This document shows, piece after piece, positions 3,436 through 38,336 of a DNA stretch of 64,000 nt; position 1 is the first letter of the stretch; each line of letters begins with the position of its first letter. The stretch is taken from contig CP126168.1 in NCBI GenBank assembly GCA_032881465.1, positions 1,178,001-1,242,000 on the forward strand, in the 5' to 3' direction. The notes beneath the pieces are model-generated. The model made no database searches. It was not told where the DNA came from and was given only the letters and a program-made list of their open reading frames with translations. Made by a program: the position numbers and the translations under genes. This stretch comes from Parvibaculaceae bacterium PLY_AMNH_Bact1 (GTDB lineage: Bacteria > Pseudomonadota > Alphaproteobacteria > Parvibaculales > Parvibaculaceae).

Positions 3436-3615
3436 CCTATTTCTCCCCATTTTTAATGTTTGTTGCCGCCAGCATATAGACAGGACAAAGGGGATGCACC
3501 ACCTGTAAAACCCCATATTCGTTGGGTAAATTGCAGACCCTATTGTTCATGCACGAACAGCAAGCTAGAAACACGTTCCCGATCTGACGAAGAGTTGAGT
3601 CTGAAGCCTTTACCC

Positions 3616-5277
3616 ATGACTGATCAGTTGAAAATAGCCCTCGCCCAATTGAACCCAACCGTGGGCGATATTGCCGGCAATATGGCGAAAGCCCGCGCTG
3701 CCCGAGCTGATGCCGCGGCAAAAGGTGCGGATCTCGTCATGTTCCCAGAGCTTTTTCTGATTGGGTATCCACCGGAAGACCTGGTGTTGAAGCCCTCATT
3801 CCAGGTGGCCGTTGATGAAGCGCTGGCAGATCTCGCGAAAGACACAAGTGATGGCGGCCCTGGTTACCTCATTGGCGCACCGTCCCGCGAAGAGACAGGC
3901 CTTCACAATTCCATGGTCCTGATCGACGGTGGAGAGGTCGTCGGCAAACGCCATAAAATCCATCTGCCAAACTATGGTGTCTTTGATGAACCCCGCGTCT
4001 TTGCACCCGGCAGTATGCCAGGACCCTTGCCGTTCAGAGGTGTGCGCTTAGGGGTTCCCGTCTGCGAAGACATCTGGTTTGAAGATGTGACGGAATGTTT
4101 GGAAGAGACCGGCGCTGAGATGCTGCTGGTGCCCAACGGCTCACCTTTTGACACTGCTAAGCACGATGCACGCATGCAGCACTGTGTTGCCCGGATCAAC
4201 GAGACCGGATTGCCACTCGTCTATCTCAACCAAATCGGCGGCCAGGACGAGCTTGTATTTGATGGCGCGTCGTTCGTGTTGAACAGCGACCTGTCCTTGG
4301 CCGCGCAAATGCCGGCCTGGATAGAAACTGTCCTTGTGACCACCTGGTCCCGCGAAGGCAGTGGTTGGGTCTGCGCCAAGGAAGCCGCTGCACAAATCCC
4401 GGATGGAGATGAGGCGATCTACAATGCCTGTGTCTTGGGTCTCCGCGACTATGTCACCAAGAACCGTTTTCCTGGTGTGGTGCTCGGCCTATCTGGCGGT
4501 GTCGACTCGGCGATCTGTGCGGCCATGGCCGTCGATGCGCTCGGCGCTGACAAAGTGCACTGCGTCATGCTGCCTTACAAATACACAGCCGATGAAAGCG
4601 TGAGCGATGCGGAGCAATGCGCTGCCGCACTTGGTGTGCGTTATGACAGCGTGCCCATCGAAGGGCCGGTGAAGGGCTTTCTTGAAGCGCTTGACCCCAT
4701 GTTCGCCAACACACAATCTGATACGACGGAAGAAAACCTTCAGTCACGGACCCGCGGCACCATCCTCATGGCACTGTCGAATAAGTTTGGCAGCATGGTG
4801 GTGACCACCGGCAACAAGTCGGAAGTGTCGGTCGGGTATGCTACCCTCTATGGCGACATGAATGGCGGCTACAACCCGATCAAGGATCTCTACAAACTTC
4901 AGGTGTTTGCACTCTGTCGTTGGCGGAACGCAAACAAGCCGTCAATTGGTCTTGGCCCAGACGGTGAAGTGATACCGGTCAACATCATCACCAAGCCTCC
5001 GTCGGCAGAACTTCGTGAAGATCAAAAGGACGAAGACTCCTTACCTCCTTATGAGGTGCTCGACGACATTCTCGAATGCCTGGTTGAGAAAGAAATGCCC
5101 TTTGAGGACATTGTCGAACGCGGTCACGACCGGGACCTTGTGAAACGCATCGAGCATCTGCTCTACGTTGCAGAATACAAACGACGTCAGGCGGCACCGG
5201 GCGTGAAGATCACGTCGCGCAATTTCGGGCGCGATCGTCGCTATCCCATCACCAACGGTTATCGCGACGCGCGGTAA
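3616..5277 (+). CDS. nadE: Glutamine-dependent NAD+ synthetase
   Basis: Two-domain NAD synthetase (553 residues) making NAD from deamido-NAD, ATP and glutamine-derived ammonia. The N-terminal nitrilase-type glutaminase domain shows its triad: Glu45 (FPELFLIGYPPEDL), Lys114 (RHKIHLPNYGVFDE) and Cys150 (GVPVCEDIWF). The C-terminal synthetase domain carries the PP-loop SGGVDS at residues 293-298 and TTGNKSE further on. Length matches the family. ATG 3616 gives MTDQLKIALAQLNP, the usual N-terminus; the open frame extends back to 3460 without similarity. gltX follows after 8 bases, so the two are likely co-transcribed. Confidence 0.97.
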   Translation: MTDQLKIALAQLNPTVGDIAGNMAKARAARADAAAKGADLVMFPELFLIGYPPEDLVLKPSFQVAVDEALADLAKDTSDGGPGYLIGAPSREETGLHNSMVLIDGGEVVGKRHKIHLPNYGVFDEPRVFAPGSMPGPLPFRGVRLGVPVCEDIWFEDVTECLEETGAEMLLVPNGSPFDTAKHDARMQHCVARINETGLPLVYLNQIGGQDELVFDGASFVLNSDLSLAAQMPAWIETVLVTTWSREGSGWVCAKEAAAQIPDGDEAIYNACVLGLRDYVTKNRFPGVVLGLSGGVDSAICAAMAVDALGADKVHCVMLPYKYTADESVSDAEQCAAALGVRYDSVPIEGPVKGFLEALDPMFANTQSDTTEENLQSRTRGTILMALSNKFGSMVVTTGNKSEVSVGYATLYGDMNGGYNPIKDLYKLQVFALCRWRNANKPSIGLGPDGEVIPVNIITKPPSAELREDQKDEDSLPPYEVLDDILECLVEKEMPFEDIVERGHDRDLVKRIEHLLYVAEYKRRQAAPGVKITSRNFGRDRRYPITNGYRDAR

Positions 5278-5285
5278 GGAATAAA

Positions 5286-6632
5286 ATGACTGCTTGTCTT
5301 AGATTTGCGCCGAGTCCAACCGGCACCATTCATGTCGGCAATGTTCGTACGGCCTTGTTCAACTGGCTGCTGGCGAAGAAGGAAGGCGGTTCTTTCATTC
5401 TGCGTCTGGACGACACAGATACAGAACGCTCTACACAGGAATATGCCGACAAGATTGTGGCTGATATGGCCTGGCTCGGTCTGACGCACGACAAGACCTT
5501 CCGCCAGTCTGACCGGTTTGACCGATATGCAGAGATGGTTGAAAAGCTGAAAGCCGATGGCCGGCTCTATCCCTGCTACGAAACACCAGATGAGCTGGAC
5601 CGCAAACGCAAACGCCAGCTGGGTCGCAAGCTGCCACCTGTCTATGACCGCGCAGCGCTCAATCTGACCGATGACGAAAAAGCGGCCTTTGAAGCAGAAG
5701 GGCGTCAGCCCCATTGGCGCTTCAAGCTCGATCCGGAAGTCGTAGAGTTCGATGATCTCTTTTTGGGGCAGGTTAAGGTCGATACGAAGAGCCTGTCGGA
5801 CCCGATCCTCATCCGCGGCGACGGCTCCTATCTTTATACATTGCCAAGCGTCGTCGACGATATTGATATGGAGATCACCCATATTGTGCGCGGTGAAGAT
5901 CACGTGACCAACACAGGTGCGCAGGTGCAGGTGTTCCGGGCACTGGGCGCGGAGCCACCTATCTTTGGACATCACTCCTTGTTGCTCAATGAAGAGGGCC
6001 AGCCGCTTTCCAAACGCCTTCGCGGCGAATACTCAATTGAAGCGCTTCGCGATGCCGGGTTTGAACCTATGGCCGTGACGTCGTTCCTCGCGAAGCTTGG
6101 CACATCAGATGCAGCTATTGCCCGATCAGACCTGAAAGTCTTGGCAGACGAGTTTGAGCCAGGTGAGGTAGGGCGCTCAGGCCATCGGTTTGACAAGAAA
6201 GAACTGGAACGCGTTAACGCAGCGCTCATGCACATGACACCCTTCGAAAGGGTGTCTGACCGTTTGGCAGAGCGGGGCATTGACGGCGGCGCTGACTTCT
6301 GGGACGCAGTTCGCCCCAATCTCACACTCTTTGATGGGGTGGCGGAGTGGTGGCACGTCGCCCATGGGCCCGTTGAGCCGGTCATCGAAGCTGAAGATGC
6401 TGACTTCATCACAGCAGCTGCGGCGGCACTACCATTGGAGCCTTGGGATGAAACCACCTGGAAGGCCTGGACAGGCACGCTGAAGCAAGAAACCGGACGG
6501 AAAGGTAAGGGGCTCTTCATGCCGCTGAGGCTGGCGCTCACTGGTCTTCGCCATGGACCTGAGCTCGCAAACCTGCTACCTCTTCTTGGGCGCGACCGCG
6601 CGTTGGCTCGCTTGGGCGGGCAGAAGGCTTGA
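5286..6632 (+). CDS. gltX: Glutamyl-tRNA synthetase
   Basis: Class I aminoacyl-tRNA synthetase (448 residues) charging tRNA with glutamate. The HIGH-type motif appears as TIHVGNVRTALFNW near residue 15 and the KMSKS-type loop as QPLSKRLRGEYS near residue 240. DDTDTERS is the glutamate-binding stretch. Alphaproteobacteria often carry two GltX paralogues, one favouring tRNA-Gln for the transamidation route; this shorter protein could be either. It follows nadE with an 8-base gap. Confidence 0.93.
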   Translation: MTACLRFAPSPTGTIHVGNVRTALFNWLLAKKEGGSFILRLDDTDTERSTQEYADKIVADMAWLGLTHDKTFRQSDRFDRYAEMVEKLKADGRLYPCYETPDELDRKRKRQLGRKLPPVYDRAALNLTDDEKAAFEAEGRQPHWRFKLDPEVVEFDDLFLGQVKVDTKSLSDPILIRGDGSYLYTLPSVVDDIDMEITHIVRGEDHVTNTGAQVQVFRALGAEPPIFGHHSLLLNEEGQPLSKRLRGEYSIEALRDAGFEPMAVTSFLAKLGTSDAAIARSDLKVLADEFEPGEVGRSGHRFDKKELERVNAALMHMTPFERVSDRLAERGIDGGADFWDAVRPNLTLFDGVAEWWHVAHGPVEPVIEAEDADFITAAAAALPLEPWDETTWKAWTGTLKQETGRKGKGLFMPLRLALTGLRHGPELANLLPLLGRDRALARLGGQKA

Positions 6633-6819
6633 ATTTGGACACGAATGGCGAGACCGATCCGATGAACATCATCAACGCGATCATTACTAAGGGTCTGATT
6701 ATCAGCGGCTAACAGCATTGGCCGCCGCCGTTCGAGCACGTTTTCTTCAGAAATTCAGACGTTAAGAACCGGCCGGTGGCGACACAGGGAACACGGTTGG
6801 GCGGACATGTGTCCGTTGA

Positions 6820-36067: not shown

Positions 36068-36141
36068 TGGCTGGGGAACTAGGATTCGAACCTAGACTAC
36101 CTGAGTCAGAGTCAGGCGTCCTACCATTAGACGATTCCCCA
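36068..36141 (-). tRNA. tRNA-Gln (anticodon CTG)
   Basis: Full cloverleaf on the minus strand. Acceptor stem TGGGGAA (36141-36135) pairs with TTCCCCA (36078-36072), discriminator G, and CCA is encoded (36070-36068). The D arm holds TAATGGTA, the anticodon stem CCTGA/TCAGG encloses loop CTCTGAC with anticodon CTG at 36109-36107, and the T loop is TTCGAAT. The first 24 bases are repeated at 38081-38104. Confidence 0.97.
36118..36141 (-). repeat. 24-base direct repeat, copy 1 (5' part of tRNA-Gln)
   Basis: The 24 bases from 36118 to 36141 are identical, in the same orientation, to 38081-38104; flanking bases differ on both sides. This is what duplicated attachment sites of a tRNA-targeted insertion look like, though insertions more often duplicate a tRNA 3' end. 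Confidence 0.8.
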
Positions 36142-36265
36142 ATGAAATCAATGACTTACGGGAGAGTTTAGCGCTTGCTAAATTTTCCTGTGCGATATCA
36201 ATGGTTTGCGCGACAGGGTGTACCGGAATCTCACAGGAGGTTCAAGCAGTTGTGACCGGGGCTGG

Positions 36266-36282
36266 TGCGCACGCCGTGCGCA
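36266..36282. repeat. 17-base perfect palindrome
   Basis: TGCGCACG (36266-36273), one C, then CGTGCGCA (36275-36282). It lies in the gene-free part of the tRNA-bounded segment. It could be a protein-binding site or a strong hairpin; no T-run follows. Confidence 0.6.
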
Positions 36283-36495
36283 TCAAAAGTGCGACATTTT
36301 GCCTAGGTAAAAGAACTAGGTTTCAGGCCGATTTTTGCCGGATTTGGGCGAAAATTCCGAGAGTCAAGGTTATCCCATAGTAGAATCTGTGAGTTATTAT
36401 GGGTTACATCAGCTGGTCAGCTTTGCATTTCTCAGCCTAAAATGCTTAAACAAGTCGTGTTCAGGGGGACGCTAGAGTGTCAAAGACACCATCTG

Positions 36496-36510
36496 TTAAG
36501 ACGAGTTTAA
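36496..36510. promoter_or_regulatory. CtrA-like box (TTAA-N7-TTAA)
   Basis: TTAA (36496-36499) and TTAA (36507-36510) are separated by exactly seven bases, the consensus spacing for the alphaproteobacterial cell-cycle regulator CtrA. It lies 51 bases before the small ORF start at 36562. A single such match can occur by chance. Confidence 0.35.
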
Positions 36511-36561
36511 GGCTATGCGTACAGCATGAGACTTGAGTTCGAACCCCGTAGGGAGGAACCG

Positions 36562-36816
36562 ATGGAGGTCAGAATGTCGAATTGGCAAACAGTAAGCATC
36601 GCTCGTGCGCAAGCGTTTGGCGATACGGTCGATTGGTTGATTCCCACAGATACGGGGATCAAATCCCACCCAGCGCCAGTGGGTAGTTCTGGTGAACCCA
36701 TGCCGTCACACACATCAGCTCGGGAACACCCTGTAGAACAGACCACTACAGCGACTCCGCTAACGTTGCCTAAGGCTTCTGGTGGTGCCACTGCTGGTTA
36801 TGAATCTCAGACCTGA
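36562..36816 (+). CDS. Small hypothetical protein in the tRNA-bounded segment
   Basis: An 84-residue ORF starting at ATG 36562, with GGGAGG 5 bases upstream; an earlier in-frame ATG at 36526 lacks such a site. The protein begins MEVRMSNWQTVSIARAQAFG; its second half is rich in Thr, Pro, Ser and Gly and probably disordered. No motif, membrane segment or family recognised. Its last 47 bases overlap the 3' end of the convergent proteinase gene. It may not be expressed; the ribosome-binding site and CtrA-like box are the only support. Confidence 0.35.
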   Translation: MEVRMSNWQTVSIARAQAFGDTVDWLIPTDTGIKSHPAPVGSSGEPMPSHTSAREHPVEQTTTATPLTLPKASGGATAGYESQT

Positions 36817-37834
36817 TCAAGGGTTCGCCTTGAGCGCCAGCTCCAGACACAACTAGCGTCATTTCACGGTCGAAGCTGCTTGTTAGCCGCGAACTTTCTA
36901 TGATCGCCATAGTGTTGTTGCACTCAAATTTAGTGCCATCCACAAACTCAGGTCCTGGCTGGCCGGGTTGCACTGCTGGATTTCTCGGAGCGAGCCGATA
37001 AAAGTCGGCCATCGGATCGAATATCTGGTCGTTTTGTAGAAGCTCTTCAAACTCAAGGTAGAGTTTCCAGACAGCTGTCTCCAATTCCGGTGGCACATGC
37101 TCGGTTATCTTTAAGCCCAGTTCTTCCTTCGCCTCTTTTCTATTGATTGGATGTCCATGGAAGTAGAGTTTGGAAGCCAAAGTATCAATAGTTTCATCTA
37201 TGACATGCTTGTGTGTTTCTTCGGACATGTGAGTGAGCAGTATTTTTCTAGCGATCATTCGGCTTTGTGCGATAAATCTTTCCACATTGCCCAAAGCGAG
37301 TGGATGGACTTTTTCCGCGAGAATTTTGACCGCCTTAACAAGTTCATCTTCATGCCTAATGCCAACTGTGTCCTTTATGAAGCTGATATAGGCTTTAACA
37401 TCTTCAACGCTAATACCCATCTTGTGCCCATTTTGAGGGTCAACCGGATTGTACTCGTTGCTAACGGTTGGATCGATTGGTCCCATCTCTCCGAACGGGT
37501 GCATTATTATTTCATCTGCTCCAAGCGCCAGCATCGTCGCTGCGCTGTAAGCGCGATAAGGTATGATTACACCGATTTCCTTGGCGAACTCGCGAAACAG
37601 AGAAATTATCCGCCAAGGCACGACACCATTGCCGCCATTGCTGCAAATAAACAAGTCGATTTTGTCGACAGGCCTATTGGGGAGAAGTTGAAGGTGCTCG
37701 AAAAAGACTCTGACTGAATCTTCCATCATTTGCGCACCTAACCCCGGTCTCAGGCTAGTCAAATAGCAAATAACATGTGAATCCCGAGCGTCTTCAATTT
37801 CCCTGATGATTTGTGTTCTTGCTGCGTGTGTCAT
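36770..37834 (-). CDS. SDH-family Clp-fold serine proteinase
   Basis: A 354-residue protein of the SDH/SppA-like Clp-fold group (serine dehydrogenase proteinase family). The fold blocks are visible: KIDLFICSNGGNGVVPWRII (oxyanion strand, near 58-77), VIIPYRAYSAATMLALGADE (nucleophile region, Ser in YSAAT near residue 97), and IIMHPFGEMGPIDPTVSN. No signal peptide or transmembrane helix is obvious, unlike true SppA, so it is probably cytoplasmic. The C-terminal third is helical and of unknown role. Its codon content is poor in G+C: four 60-base lines counted by hand give 35-53%, mean 44%, well below neighbours. It lies inside the tRNA-Gln-bounded segment and looks acquired. Target proteins unknown. 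Confidence 0.82.
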   Translation of the reverse strand: MTHAARTQIIREIEDARDSHVICYLTSLRPGLGAQMMEDSVRVFFEHLQLLPNRPVDKIDLFICSNGGNGVVPWRIISLFREFAKEIGVIIPYRAYSAATMLALGADEIIMHPFGEMGPIDPTVSNEYNPVDPQNGHKMGISVEDVKAYISFIKDTVGIRHEDELVKAVKILAEKVHPLALGNVERFIAQSRMIARKILLTHMSEETHKHVIDETIDTLASKLYFHGHPINRKEAKEELGLKITEHVPPELETAVWKLYLEFEELLQNDQIFDPMADFYRLAPRNPAVQPGQPGPEFVDGTKFECNNTMAIIESSRLTSSFDREMTLVVSGAGAQGEPLIRSEIHNQQWHHQKP

Positions 37835-38034
37835 TGGTCTTCCCGATGCTTTCAGTAAACTATCAATATCACACAGGCAGGCTCGTAAAATATCTTTTCG
37901 CTTAGTGAGGAGCGCTTAGGGTTGTTTTGTCCGCGTGCTGATCCATCGGTCAACGCACTGGAGCAAATATCGTTGGTGATCAGTTGTGGTTTTAGCACTC
38001 GCTCGCAAGCCGTTGATTCAACTGACGGGAACAA

Positions 38035-38065
38035 AACGGGGAAAGTGCTAAACCCCGTTGTTTTT
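38035..38065 (+). terminator. Intrinsic terminator with an alternative pairing partner
   Basis: Stem AACGGGG (38035-38041) with CCCCGTT (38053-38059), then GTTTTTATT. Its loop contains AGTGCTAAA (38044-38052), which is perfectly complementary to TTTAGCACT at 37991-37999, so two mutually exclusive folds are possible. No protein gene precedes it on this strand, so the terminated transcript would be non-coding. The opposite strand also carries a T-rich end. Confidence 0.6.
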
Positions 38066-38067
38066 AT

Positions 38068-38104
38068 TGGGGAGCTGGTGGTCCTACCATTAGACGATTC
38101 CCCA
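38068..38104 (-). pseudogene. Degenerate tRNA-Gln fragment
   Basis: Read on the minus strand it begins with the first 24 bases of the tRNA-Gln at 36068-36141 (identical), then jumps to CACCAGC and TCCCCA, which resembles a tRNA 3' acceptor strand. Acceptor TGGGGA (38104-38099) can still pair with TCCCCA (38073-38068), but anticodon and T arms are missing. Either an attachment-site remnant or an internally deleted tRNA copy. Confidence 0.75.
38081..38104 (-). repeat. 24-base direct repeat, copy 2
   Basis: Identical and parallel to 36118-36141. The two copies bound 1,939 bases containing the SDH-family proteinase and the small ORF. Confidence 0.8.
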
Positions 38105-38336
38105 TCCGGGCAACTCCAGCGACCATATTTCAGCGGCTGAAGTGGGGCAGAACTTATGTGTCCCGCGCCTTCGCGTCAACCGATGTTAAAAGCCCCGAAA
38201 GCATTCATTAAACCAGCCATTCCTTCGATCTCGCGAACCTGATAGGCTCGCCCCAACTAACGATTAAAGGACCCTGGTTGAGACGGGGCAGCAAGGCGAG
38301 AATTGCTTTGCGCACCGTACTCCCAGGTGGATCGAT

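What the first reader, a model, noticed from the sequence alone, without database searches (positions are those of the whole stretch)
36068..38104. tRNA-Gln-bounded cassette carrying a Clp-fold serine proteinase and no recombinase
Seen: an intact tRNA-Gln(CTG) and a parallel fragment with its first 24 bases flank about 1.94 kb. Four 60-base lines of the proteinase gene counted by hand are 35-53% G+C (mean 44%) against roughly 60% nearby. The segment holds only an SDH-family proteinase, a small unknown ORF and structured non-coding DNA. Known: mobile elements use tRNA genes as attachment sites, usually at the 3' end; use of the 5' half is rarer. Inference: a compact element mobilised in trans, possibly a defence or stress cargo, or a decayed island. 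This is my best candidate for an undescribed unit.
Basis: partly seen in the sequence, partly recalled or inferred. Interest (0 to 1): 0.75.

Follow-up and report, generated by a model that had tools for sequence, protein, structure and literature searches.

The report
Phage leftover at a tRNA gene
A 1.9 kb piece between a glutamine tRNA gene and a copy of that gene's front end is what remains of a phage-type insertion that has lost its inserting enzyme and kept one phage protease gene with a small partner gene of unknown function.

Summary
In detail: tRNA-Gln(CTG) 36068-36141(-), an exact 24-nt copy of its 5' end at 38081-38104, and between them a low-GC SDH-family proteinase, a small ORF and no recombinase. 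The ends are phage attachment sites. Four members of one tyrosine-integrase subfamily in viral contigs carry the same tRNA-Gln 5' core 11-46 nt behind the integrase gene. The window's two inner flanks match the arms of one such attP (left 32/60, right 53/110; 0 of 10,000 shuffles reach either), and AGTGCTAAA aligns in all five right arms compared. So the intact tRNA, with a phage-derived 5' flank, is attL; the 24-nt copy, which kept the native promoter, is attR. One relative shows a near-empty site, another a different integrase in the same tRNA. The proteinase was not found in 39 other genomes of the order; its nearest relatives are phage-borne (64% full length), and four phage loci share the convergent small ORF. 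No close integrase was found in the genome, so I read it as a CIME-like prophage remnant with an intact moron, not an active element. An ancestral second tRNA is rejected. The function of the proteinase pair is unknown; superinfection defence is my guess.

The parts
36068..36141 (-). Intact tRNA-Gln(CTG) gene; its 5' 24 nt (36118-36141) are the attL core
36142..36201 (-). Left attP arm, now the 5' flank of the intact tRNA; holds GCTAAA/TTTAGC sites (36167, 36177) and GTAAGTCATTGATTT
   Evidence: 32/60 identical to phage L131 arm, 0 of 10,000 shuffles; only 24/60 with L133 (536 of 10,000); native tRNA flanks against L131 16/60; 7-row alignment; sites
36202..36573 (.). Stretch without a recognised gene or integrase relic; palindrome TGCGCACGCCGTGCGCA at 36266-36282
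36574..36816 (+). Small convergent gene, 80 aa, GGAGGT Shine-Dalgarno at 36564-36569
   Evidence: Convergent ORF also behind the proteinase in L199, L200, L201, L203; HMM built without the window ranks this ORF 1st of 1,297 window ORFs, E 0.12
36770..37834 (-). SDH-family Clp-fold serine proteinase, 354 aa; G67, G68, S97, D121, H226 invariant in 28 sequences
   Evidence: nearest viral relative 64% over residues 1-353
37971..38080 (-). Right attP arm with two AGTGCTAAA sites in opposite orientation (37991, 38044)
   Evidence: 53/110 identical to phage L131 arm, 0 of 10,000 shuffles; 5-row alignment; the 9-mer occurs nowhere else in the window
38081..38104 (-). attR core: copy of the 5' 24 nt of tRNA-Gln
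38105..38179 (-). Native tRNA-Gln promoter region (TTGACG 38179-38174, 17 nt, TAAGTT 38156-38151), now stranded upstream of attR
   Evidence: Homologous flank sits directly on the single tRNA of G002 and G001 and on the G005 fragment; promoter reading by eye, not found by the scan

Best explanation
The segment 36142-38080 is the remnant of a temperate phage (or close relative) that inserted by a tyrosine integrase into the first 22-24 bases of tRNA-Gln(CTG). Insertion split the gene from its promoter: the chromosomal tRNA body was joined to phage DNA that brings a new 5' flank (attL), while the native promoter was left beside a 24-nt copy of the tRNA front (attR). The integrase gene, which in four related phages ends 11-46 nt before the core, and the phage body are gone. 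What is kept is a moron: an SDH/Clp-fold serine proteinase and a small convergent partner gene. Shown by comparison: attL/attR identity, insertion, horizontal gain, phage kinship of the proteinase. Inferred: loss by internal deletion, expression of the tRNA from the phage-derived flank, a lysogen-benefit (probably superinfection defence) role of the pair.
For: 24/24 direct repeat. Phage attP/provirus with the same 5' core: L131, and the two ends L133/L127 of one 56-kb provirus, where the intact tRNA-Gln lies beside the integrase and the 5' fragment lies at the other end (Phage_integrase above cutoff in L131 and L133). Of 10 viral loci found with the integrase alignment, all 4 at 66-100% identity and 1 of 6 distant ones carry the core at 21-24 of 24; the other 5 reach 16 at most (spacing). 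Arm matches to L131 32/60 and 53/110 with 0 of 10,000 shuffles; AGTGCTAAA invariant in 5 of 5 right arms. Near-empty site with the native promoter in G002. Proteinase in 1 of 40 genomes of the order and 5 of 385 of the class, own genome included. 73 viral loci encode relatives, best 64% full length. The proteinase gene is opposite to both neighbours in 14 of 41 viral loci against 31 of 297 other ORFs there (45 of the 73 loci given, 41 with both neighbours).
Against: No phage structural gene and no clear integrase relic was recognised in the cassette. None of the nine SDH-bearing viral loci inspected (L199-L207) carries this tRNA core (best 16 of 24), so cargo and integrase are not seen together in any phage. 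Other single arm comparisons are not significant: right arm with L127 36/110 and L158 34/110, left arm with L133 24/60 (536 of 10,000) and L158 20/60. The cassette has no DNA relative in phage or plasmid records. The window's small ORF is only weakly matched when left out of the HMM (E 0.12).
Confidence: 0.82

Rival explanations
1. The cassette is not dead: it is a compact non-autonomous element that keeps a complete attP (both arms and core) and is moved in trans when a phage with the matching integrase infects.
For: Both arms and the core are recognisable while everything else of a phage is missing; both genes are open; viral contigs with the matching integrase and an attP exist.
Against: No relative of the L131 integrase at E<=1e-5 in the own genome; no second copy in the own genome; the left part of the cassette (36142-36815) has no match over the same length in 39 other genomes of the family, and the cassette none in plasmids or phages; an internal deletion needs fewer assumptions.
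Confidence: 0.22
2. An ancestral tandem pair of tRNA-Gln genes, the right copy decayed to a 38-nt mini-tRNA (its 3' side TGGGGAG resembles the acceptor strand).
For: TTGGGGAGCTGGTG beside the 24-nt copy resembles the tRNA 3' end; two kinds of tRNA 5' flank exist in the genus.
Against: That stretch aligns with phage attP right arms (for example CCAGCCCAATAAAATCAA in L190), and the second flank type matches phage left arms. Among the seven genus genomes none shows two full copies (G004: none found, its contig ends at gppA); the second copy in G005 is a 42-nt fragment beside an integrase-like ORF.
Confidence: 0.03
3. The proteinase is not a moron for the lysogen but a phage particle protein (head-maturation protease), left by chance.
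For: Weak PHROG matches to head maturation proteases (E 7e-6 and weaker) beside phrog_11747; some phage copies lie within head or tail gene blocks.
Against: Best PHROG is phrog_11747, unknown function, E 6.9e-40; the gene is often inverted against its neighbours (14 of 41); in an E. coli prophage and a plasmid-borne phage record it lies inverted between antiterminator Q and the holin, away from head genes.
Confidence: 0.12

Closest known systems
CIME (cis-mobilisable element: attL and attR kept, integration and transfer genes lost)
   Same: Bounded by attL and attR of a site-specific integrase, no integrase, cargo only (definition read in passages of PMC5704250).
   Different: CIMEs as defined there derive from conjugative or mobilisable elements; [quoted passage not shown]
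Cryptic or 'grounded' prophage remnant
   Same: Phage attachment sites and a phage-type gene remain; the rest is deleted.
   Different: Only 1.9 kb is left, with no structural or lysis gene recognised; the grounded-prophage review PMC6379469 was seen only as a search listing.
Phage insertion at the 5' end of tRNA genes (Sinorhizobium meliloti survey)
   Same: [quoted passage not shown] 9 of 88 cases there, 77 of 88 at the 3' end (PMC11476347, passages).
   Different: No tRNA-Gln insertion or matching integrase was mentioned in the passages I saw; the rest of the paper was not read.
SDH/ClpP-like serine proteinases (PF01972, NF047768, phrog_11747)
   Same: PF01972 above cutoff (60.6 against 31.3 bits); fold hits SppA and ClpP (Foldseek best E 1.4e-5, TM 0.37 by query and 0.53 by target length).
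   Different: Far below the NF047768 cutoff (64.9 against 250 bits); belongs to a phage-borne clade with a small convergent partner.

Membership tests
CIME | attL and attR of one integrase at the ends | tested here: met
CIME | no integration gene inside | tested here: met
CIME | derived from an ICE or IME | tested here: inconclusive
   Arms match phage contigs; no comparison with ICE or IME arms was made. Hence 'CIME-like', not filed as a CIME
CIME | mobilised in cis after accretion with an incoming element | not testable with these tools
   needs an excision assay
Prophage remnant | attachment sites of a phage integrase | tested here: met
Prophage remnant | phage-type gene content | tested here: inconclusive
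   Proteinase in a PHROG family and nearest to viral loci, but no structural, replication or lysis gene recognised
SDH_protease PF01972 | score above the Pfam gathering cutoff | tested here: met
   60.6 bits against 31.3
SDH_protease PF01972 | Clp/SppA fold and conserved Ser with GG stretch | tested here: met
   S97, D121, H226, G67, G68 invariant in 28 sequences; model pLDDT 89.8, Foldseek hits at moderate TM. Catalytic roles are recalled, not assayed
SDH_protease PF01972 | proteolytic activity | not testable with these tools
   needs an enzyme assay
Known anti-phage defence systems (PADLOC) | match to a defence model | tested here: not met
   0 families for P0001 (E<=1) and for four SDH proteins (E<=5); the small ORF was not scanned there

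The most novel reading that the evidence does not exclude
The SDH proteinase with its small partner is an undescribed phage-borne two-gene system (protease plus regulator or substrate) that protects lysogens against other phages, and the cassette is a minimal carrier for it: just attP arms, core and moron, moved in trans by phages of the tRNA-Gln 5'-end integrase subfamily, each insertion also replacing the promoter of a host tRNA.
Probability: 0.15. Interest if true: 0.75.

Novelty: new member of a known kind. Interest (0 to 1): 0.45.

Why it matters
It turns a raw-sequence guess into a resolved site: an insertion at a tRNA 5' end in which phage DNA has replaced the 5' flank of a host tRNA gene, with the native promoter left behind as evidence. 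It points to a phage proteinase family with no known function (phrog_11747; 73 viral loci in one scan; a near-identical prophage copy in 47 of 5,426 complete E. coli genomes). A small codirectional ORF starts at the proteinase stop in 49 of 51 viral loci tested, against 190 of 473 other ORF ends in the same loci, or, in the clade nearest the window, a convergent one. That family can be tested in ordinary laboratory phage-host pairs.

Tried and rejected
Rejected: an ancestral second tRNA-Gln (see rivals); an Rfam RNA in the 'structured' DNA (only the tRNA passes its cutoff); a known defence system; the sense-strand 92-aa ORF 36513-36791(-) as the partner. The convergent ORF is conserved in the nearest phages instead (pairwise z 13.8, 12.4, 15.1 for three pairs, 5.6 and 6.1 for two more). 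Against this: sense-strand ORFs of L201/L202 and L201/L200 also reach 4.8 and 4.0, the window's convergent ORF reaches only 3.1 with L199 and not 3.0 with the others, and L202 (53% proteinase) has no convergent ORF that the HMM finds. In more distant clades the small ORF is codirectional.

Led nowhere: search for the left part of the cassette in 40 family genomes (only the own genome, with one extra 24-nt match there); single-protein scans of genome contigs and viral contigs with P0001 (none); the G005 integrase in 385 class genomes (0 at 1e-30); small-ORF scan with the L201 protein (only itself). The palindrome of the cassette occurs in 12 viral stretches with no consistent gene context by eye, so a shared regulator with the resident prophage stays a loose idea. 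The promoter and terminator scan found no more sites than shuffles.

Results against or weak: the L158 integrase-like protein (31% to L131; no Pfam match) shares the core but not the arms; G003's integrase relic upstream of its tRNA is only E 0.045, and G003's flank against L131 is not significant (23/60, 592 of 10,000). Of the 9 viral stretches with the core but no full tRNA-Gln behind it, L124, L125 and L149 showed no integrase to my eye, and L137 and L151 were not examined for one. G386 and G298, the other class genomes with two core copies, look like an assembly duplicate and two full tRNAs. Rows dropped: L213 and L250 (stop codons inside) from the alignment A5; L206, L213 and L250. Several viral SDH loci are near-identical E. 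coli-type prophages, so counts over loci are not independent.
Full report
What is there. tRNA-Gln(CTG) lies at 36068-36141 on the minus strand. An exact 24-nt copy of its 5' end lies at 38081-38104. Between them are an SDH_protease ORF (36770-37834, minus; PF01972), a small plus-strand ORF, and DNA without a recognised gene. G+C is 48.1% for the segment and 47.1% for the proteinase gene, against 55.1% for the window; no 1,065-bp step window away from this gene is as low (4 of 630, all overlapping it).

The site in relatives. A full-length match to this tRNA lies near gppA in 15 of the 20 family loci fetched, in G001, G002, G003 and G006 of the genus among them. G002 has one tRNA and 221 bp before the gppA match: a near-empty site, though its left neighbours differ. 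The flank to the right of the window's 24-nt copy is homologous to the flank directly on the G002 and G001 tRNA and on the G005 fragment, with TTGACG-17-TAAGTT, which I read as the native promoter. The intact window tRNA has another flank. G003 and G001 hold other genes between tRNA and gppA, but G001's lie beyond the native promoter and no second tRNA copy was found in either. G005 carries a 42-nt 5' copy of the tRNA beside an ORF with Arm-DNA-bind_3 (E 6.2e-10) and Phage_integrase (20.1 bits, below its 27.1 cutoff), while its intact tRNA is on another contig: a second insertion type in the same gene. Of 385 class genomes 105 have the core, and only G000, G298 and G386 have two copies; the latter two look like full tRNAs or an assembly duplicate.

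The ends are phage attachment sites. A scan of viral contigs for the core gave 36 stretches; in 9 (L124, L125, L127, L131, L136, L137, L149, L151, L158) it does not continue into a full tRNA-Gln. L131 is an attP inside a 43.9-kb contig with the integrase ending 42 nt before the core. L133 and L127 are the two ends of one 56-kb provirus: an intact tRNA-Gln beside the integrase at one end, the 5' fragment at the other, the same layout as in the window. Both integrases pass the Phage_integrase cutoff (78.4 and 70.5 bits). An integrase alignment found 10 viral loci; all 4 at 66-100% identity (L131's own contig and L133's among them) carry the core with gaps of 42, 38, 46 and 11 nt, and 1 of 6 distant ones does, gap 91; the other 5 reach 16 of 24 at most. 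The window's left flank equals the L131 arm at 32 of 60 positions and its right flank at 53 of 110 (means 19.1 and 32.5; 0 of 10,000 shuffles each); native flanks against L131 give 16 of 60. Against other single rows the window's arms are not significant (right: L127 36/110, L158 34/110; left: L133 24/60, L158 20/60). In the 5-row right-arm alignment AGTGCTAAA is invariant; in the window that 9-mer occurs only twice, both in the right arm. Flanks of G003 and G007 also resemble phage left arms (G007 against L131 34/60, 0 of 10,000; G003 against L133 27/60, 31 of 10,000, but against L131 23/60, 592 of 10,000), and G003 has a weak integrase C-terminus match in place (E 0.045). I infer earlier insertions at this gene in those lineages too.

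Hence the mechanism. Recombination within the first 22-24 nt joined the tRNA body to phage DNA carrying a new 5' flank (attL) and left the native promoter on the short copy (attR). This is shown by sequence comparison; that the phage flank drives the tRNA is inferred. The own genome has no relative of the L131 integrase at E<=1e-5 and no second copy of the segment. Its left part (36142-36815) was not found in 39 other family genomes, and the segment not in plasmids or phage records. I therefore prefer a remnant made by internal deletion over a live element.

The cargo. P0001 is found in 1 of 40 genomes of the order at E<=0.001 and 5 of 385 of the class at E<=1e-10, the own genome counted. Its alignment with three relatives finds 73 viral loci, best 64% over residues 1-353; best PHROG phrog_11747, unknown function. 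In E. coli a 35% relative lies inverted between antiterminator Q and the holin in a chromosomal prophage and in a phage-like plasmid record; near-identical DNA is in 47 of 5,426 complete genomes. In viral loci with both neighbours present the gene is opposite to both in 14 of 41, against 31 of 297 for other ORFs there (45 of 73 loci given). A codirectional ORF of 40-140 aa starts within -60 to +15 nt of the proteinase stop in 49 of 51 viral loci, against 190 of 473 other ORF ends in the same loci; several of these small proteins are alike across loci. In the clade nearest the window the conserved partner is convergent: L199/L200, L200/L201 and L201/L203 reach z 13.8, 12.4 and 15.1, while the window ORF against L199 reaches only 3.1. 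An HMM of the four phage ORFs ranks the window ORF first of 1,297 (E 0.12, next 2.0). The model (pLDDT 89.8) hits SppA and ClpP at moderate TM. A distant relative (29%) sits beside multiubiquitin, E2 and ThiF (E1) genes on a Methylocystis plasmid. PADLOC has no model for it. In print I found only two papers with the four family names searched, neither with them in title or abstract, and nothing apt in the ten listed of 280 for 'ClpP-like protease' with prophage and moron terms, none of which held that first term (listing only). My functional guess, superinfection defence, rests on position and kinship alone.

What is known. 5'-end insertion is a minority but documented: 9 of 88 phage-related sequences in S. 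meliloti tRNA genes (PMC11476347, passages). CIME is defined in PMC5704250 (passages); the cassette has attL and attR and lacks an integrase, but an ICE or IME origin was not established, so I call it CIME-like. tRNA-dependent lysogeny (PMC10865867, abstract) differs: there the tRNA is not restored. Williams 2002 on sublocations is recalled; it was not held.

Noticed in passing
G000:C1:1841286-1897419 (L280-L283): A prophage-like stretch of about 56 kb in the same genome, also on the 5' side of a tRNA: tRNA-Ser(GCT) is intact at one end, a 41-nt copy of its 5' part lies at the other, beside a 360-aa ORF with Phage_integrase above cutoff.
   Followed up: partly
window 36266-36282; G000:C1:1842471 and 1842642: Palindrome TGCGCACG(C/G)CGTGCGCA occurs at three places in the genome with at most one mismatch: once in the cassette and twice in that prophage, about 1.1-1.3 kb inside its tRNA end; none in five genus relatives. 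Twelve viral stretches hold it without common context by eye.
   Followed up: partly
viral loci L208-L255: Distant phage SDH proteinase genes are followed by a small, often S/T/N/A-rich codirectional ORF overlapping the stop codon (49 of 51 loci against 190 of 473 other ORF ends), in several alike families; no such ORF is annotated in the E. coli record looked at.
   Followed up: partly
L076 (Methylocystis iwaonis plasmid) 3527-6804: An SDH-family protein at the end of a multiubiquitin, E2, ThiF (E1), DUF6527 gene row.
   Followed up: no
L080 (G161) 24-99 and 469-1566: Another SDH relative lies about 370-390 bp from the 3' end of a tRNA-Ala(CGC) at a contig start.
   Followed up: no
G001 and G003, between tRNA-Gln and gppA: Different cargo at the same interval: a beta-lactamase-like ORF, a SnoaL-like ORF and a TetR-like regulator in G001; a Coq4-like ORF and a TetR-like regulator in G003 (names by eye from the sequence, no domain search).
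   Followed up: partly
L137, L151 (IMG/VR): Phage tRNA arrays in which a tRNA-Gln 5' end runs into other sequence, with a full tRNA-Gln about 550 bases further on.
   Followed up: no
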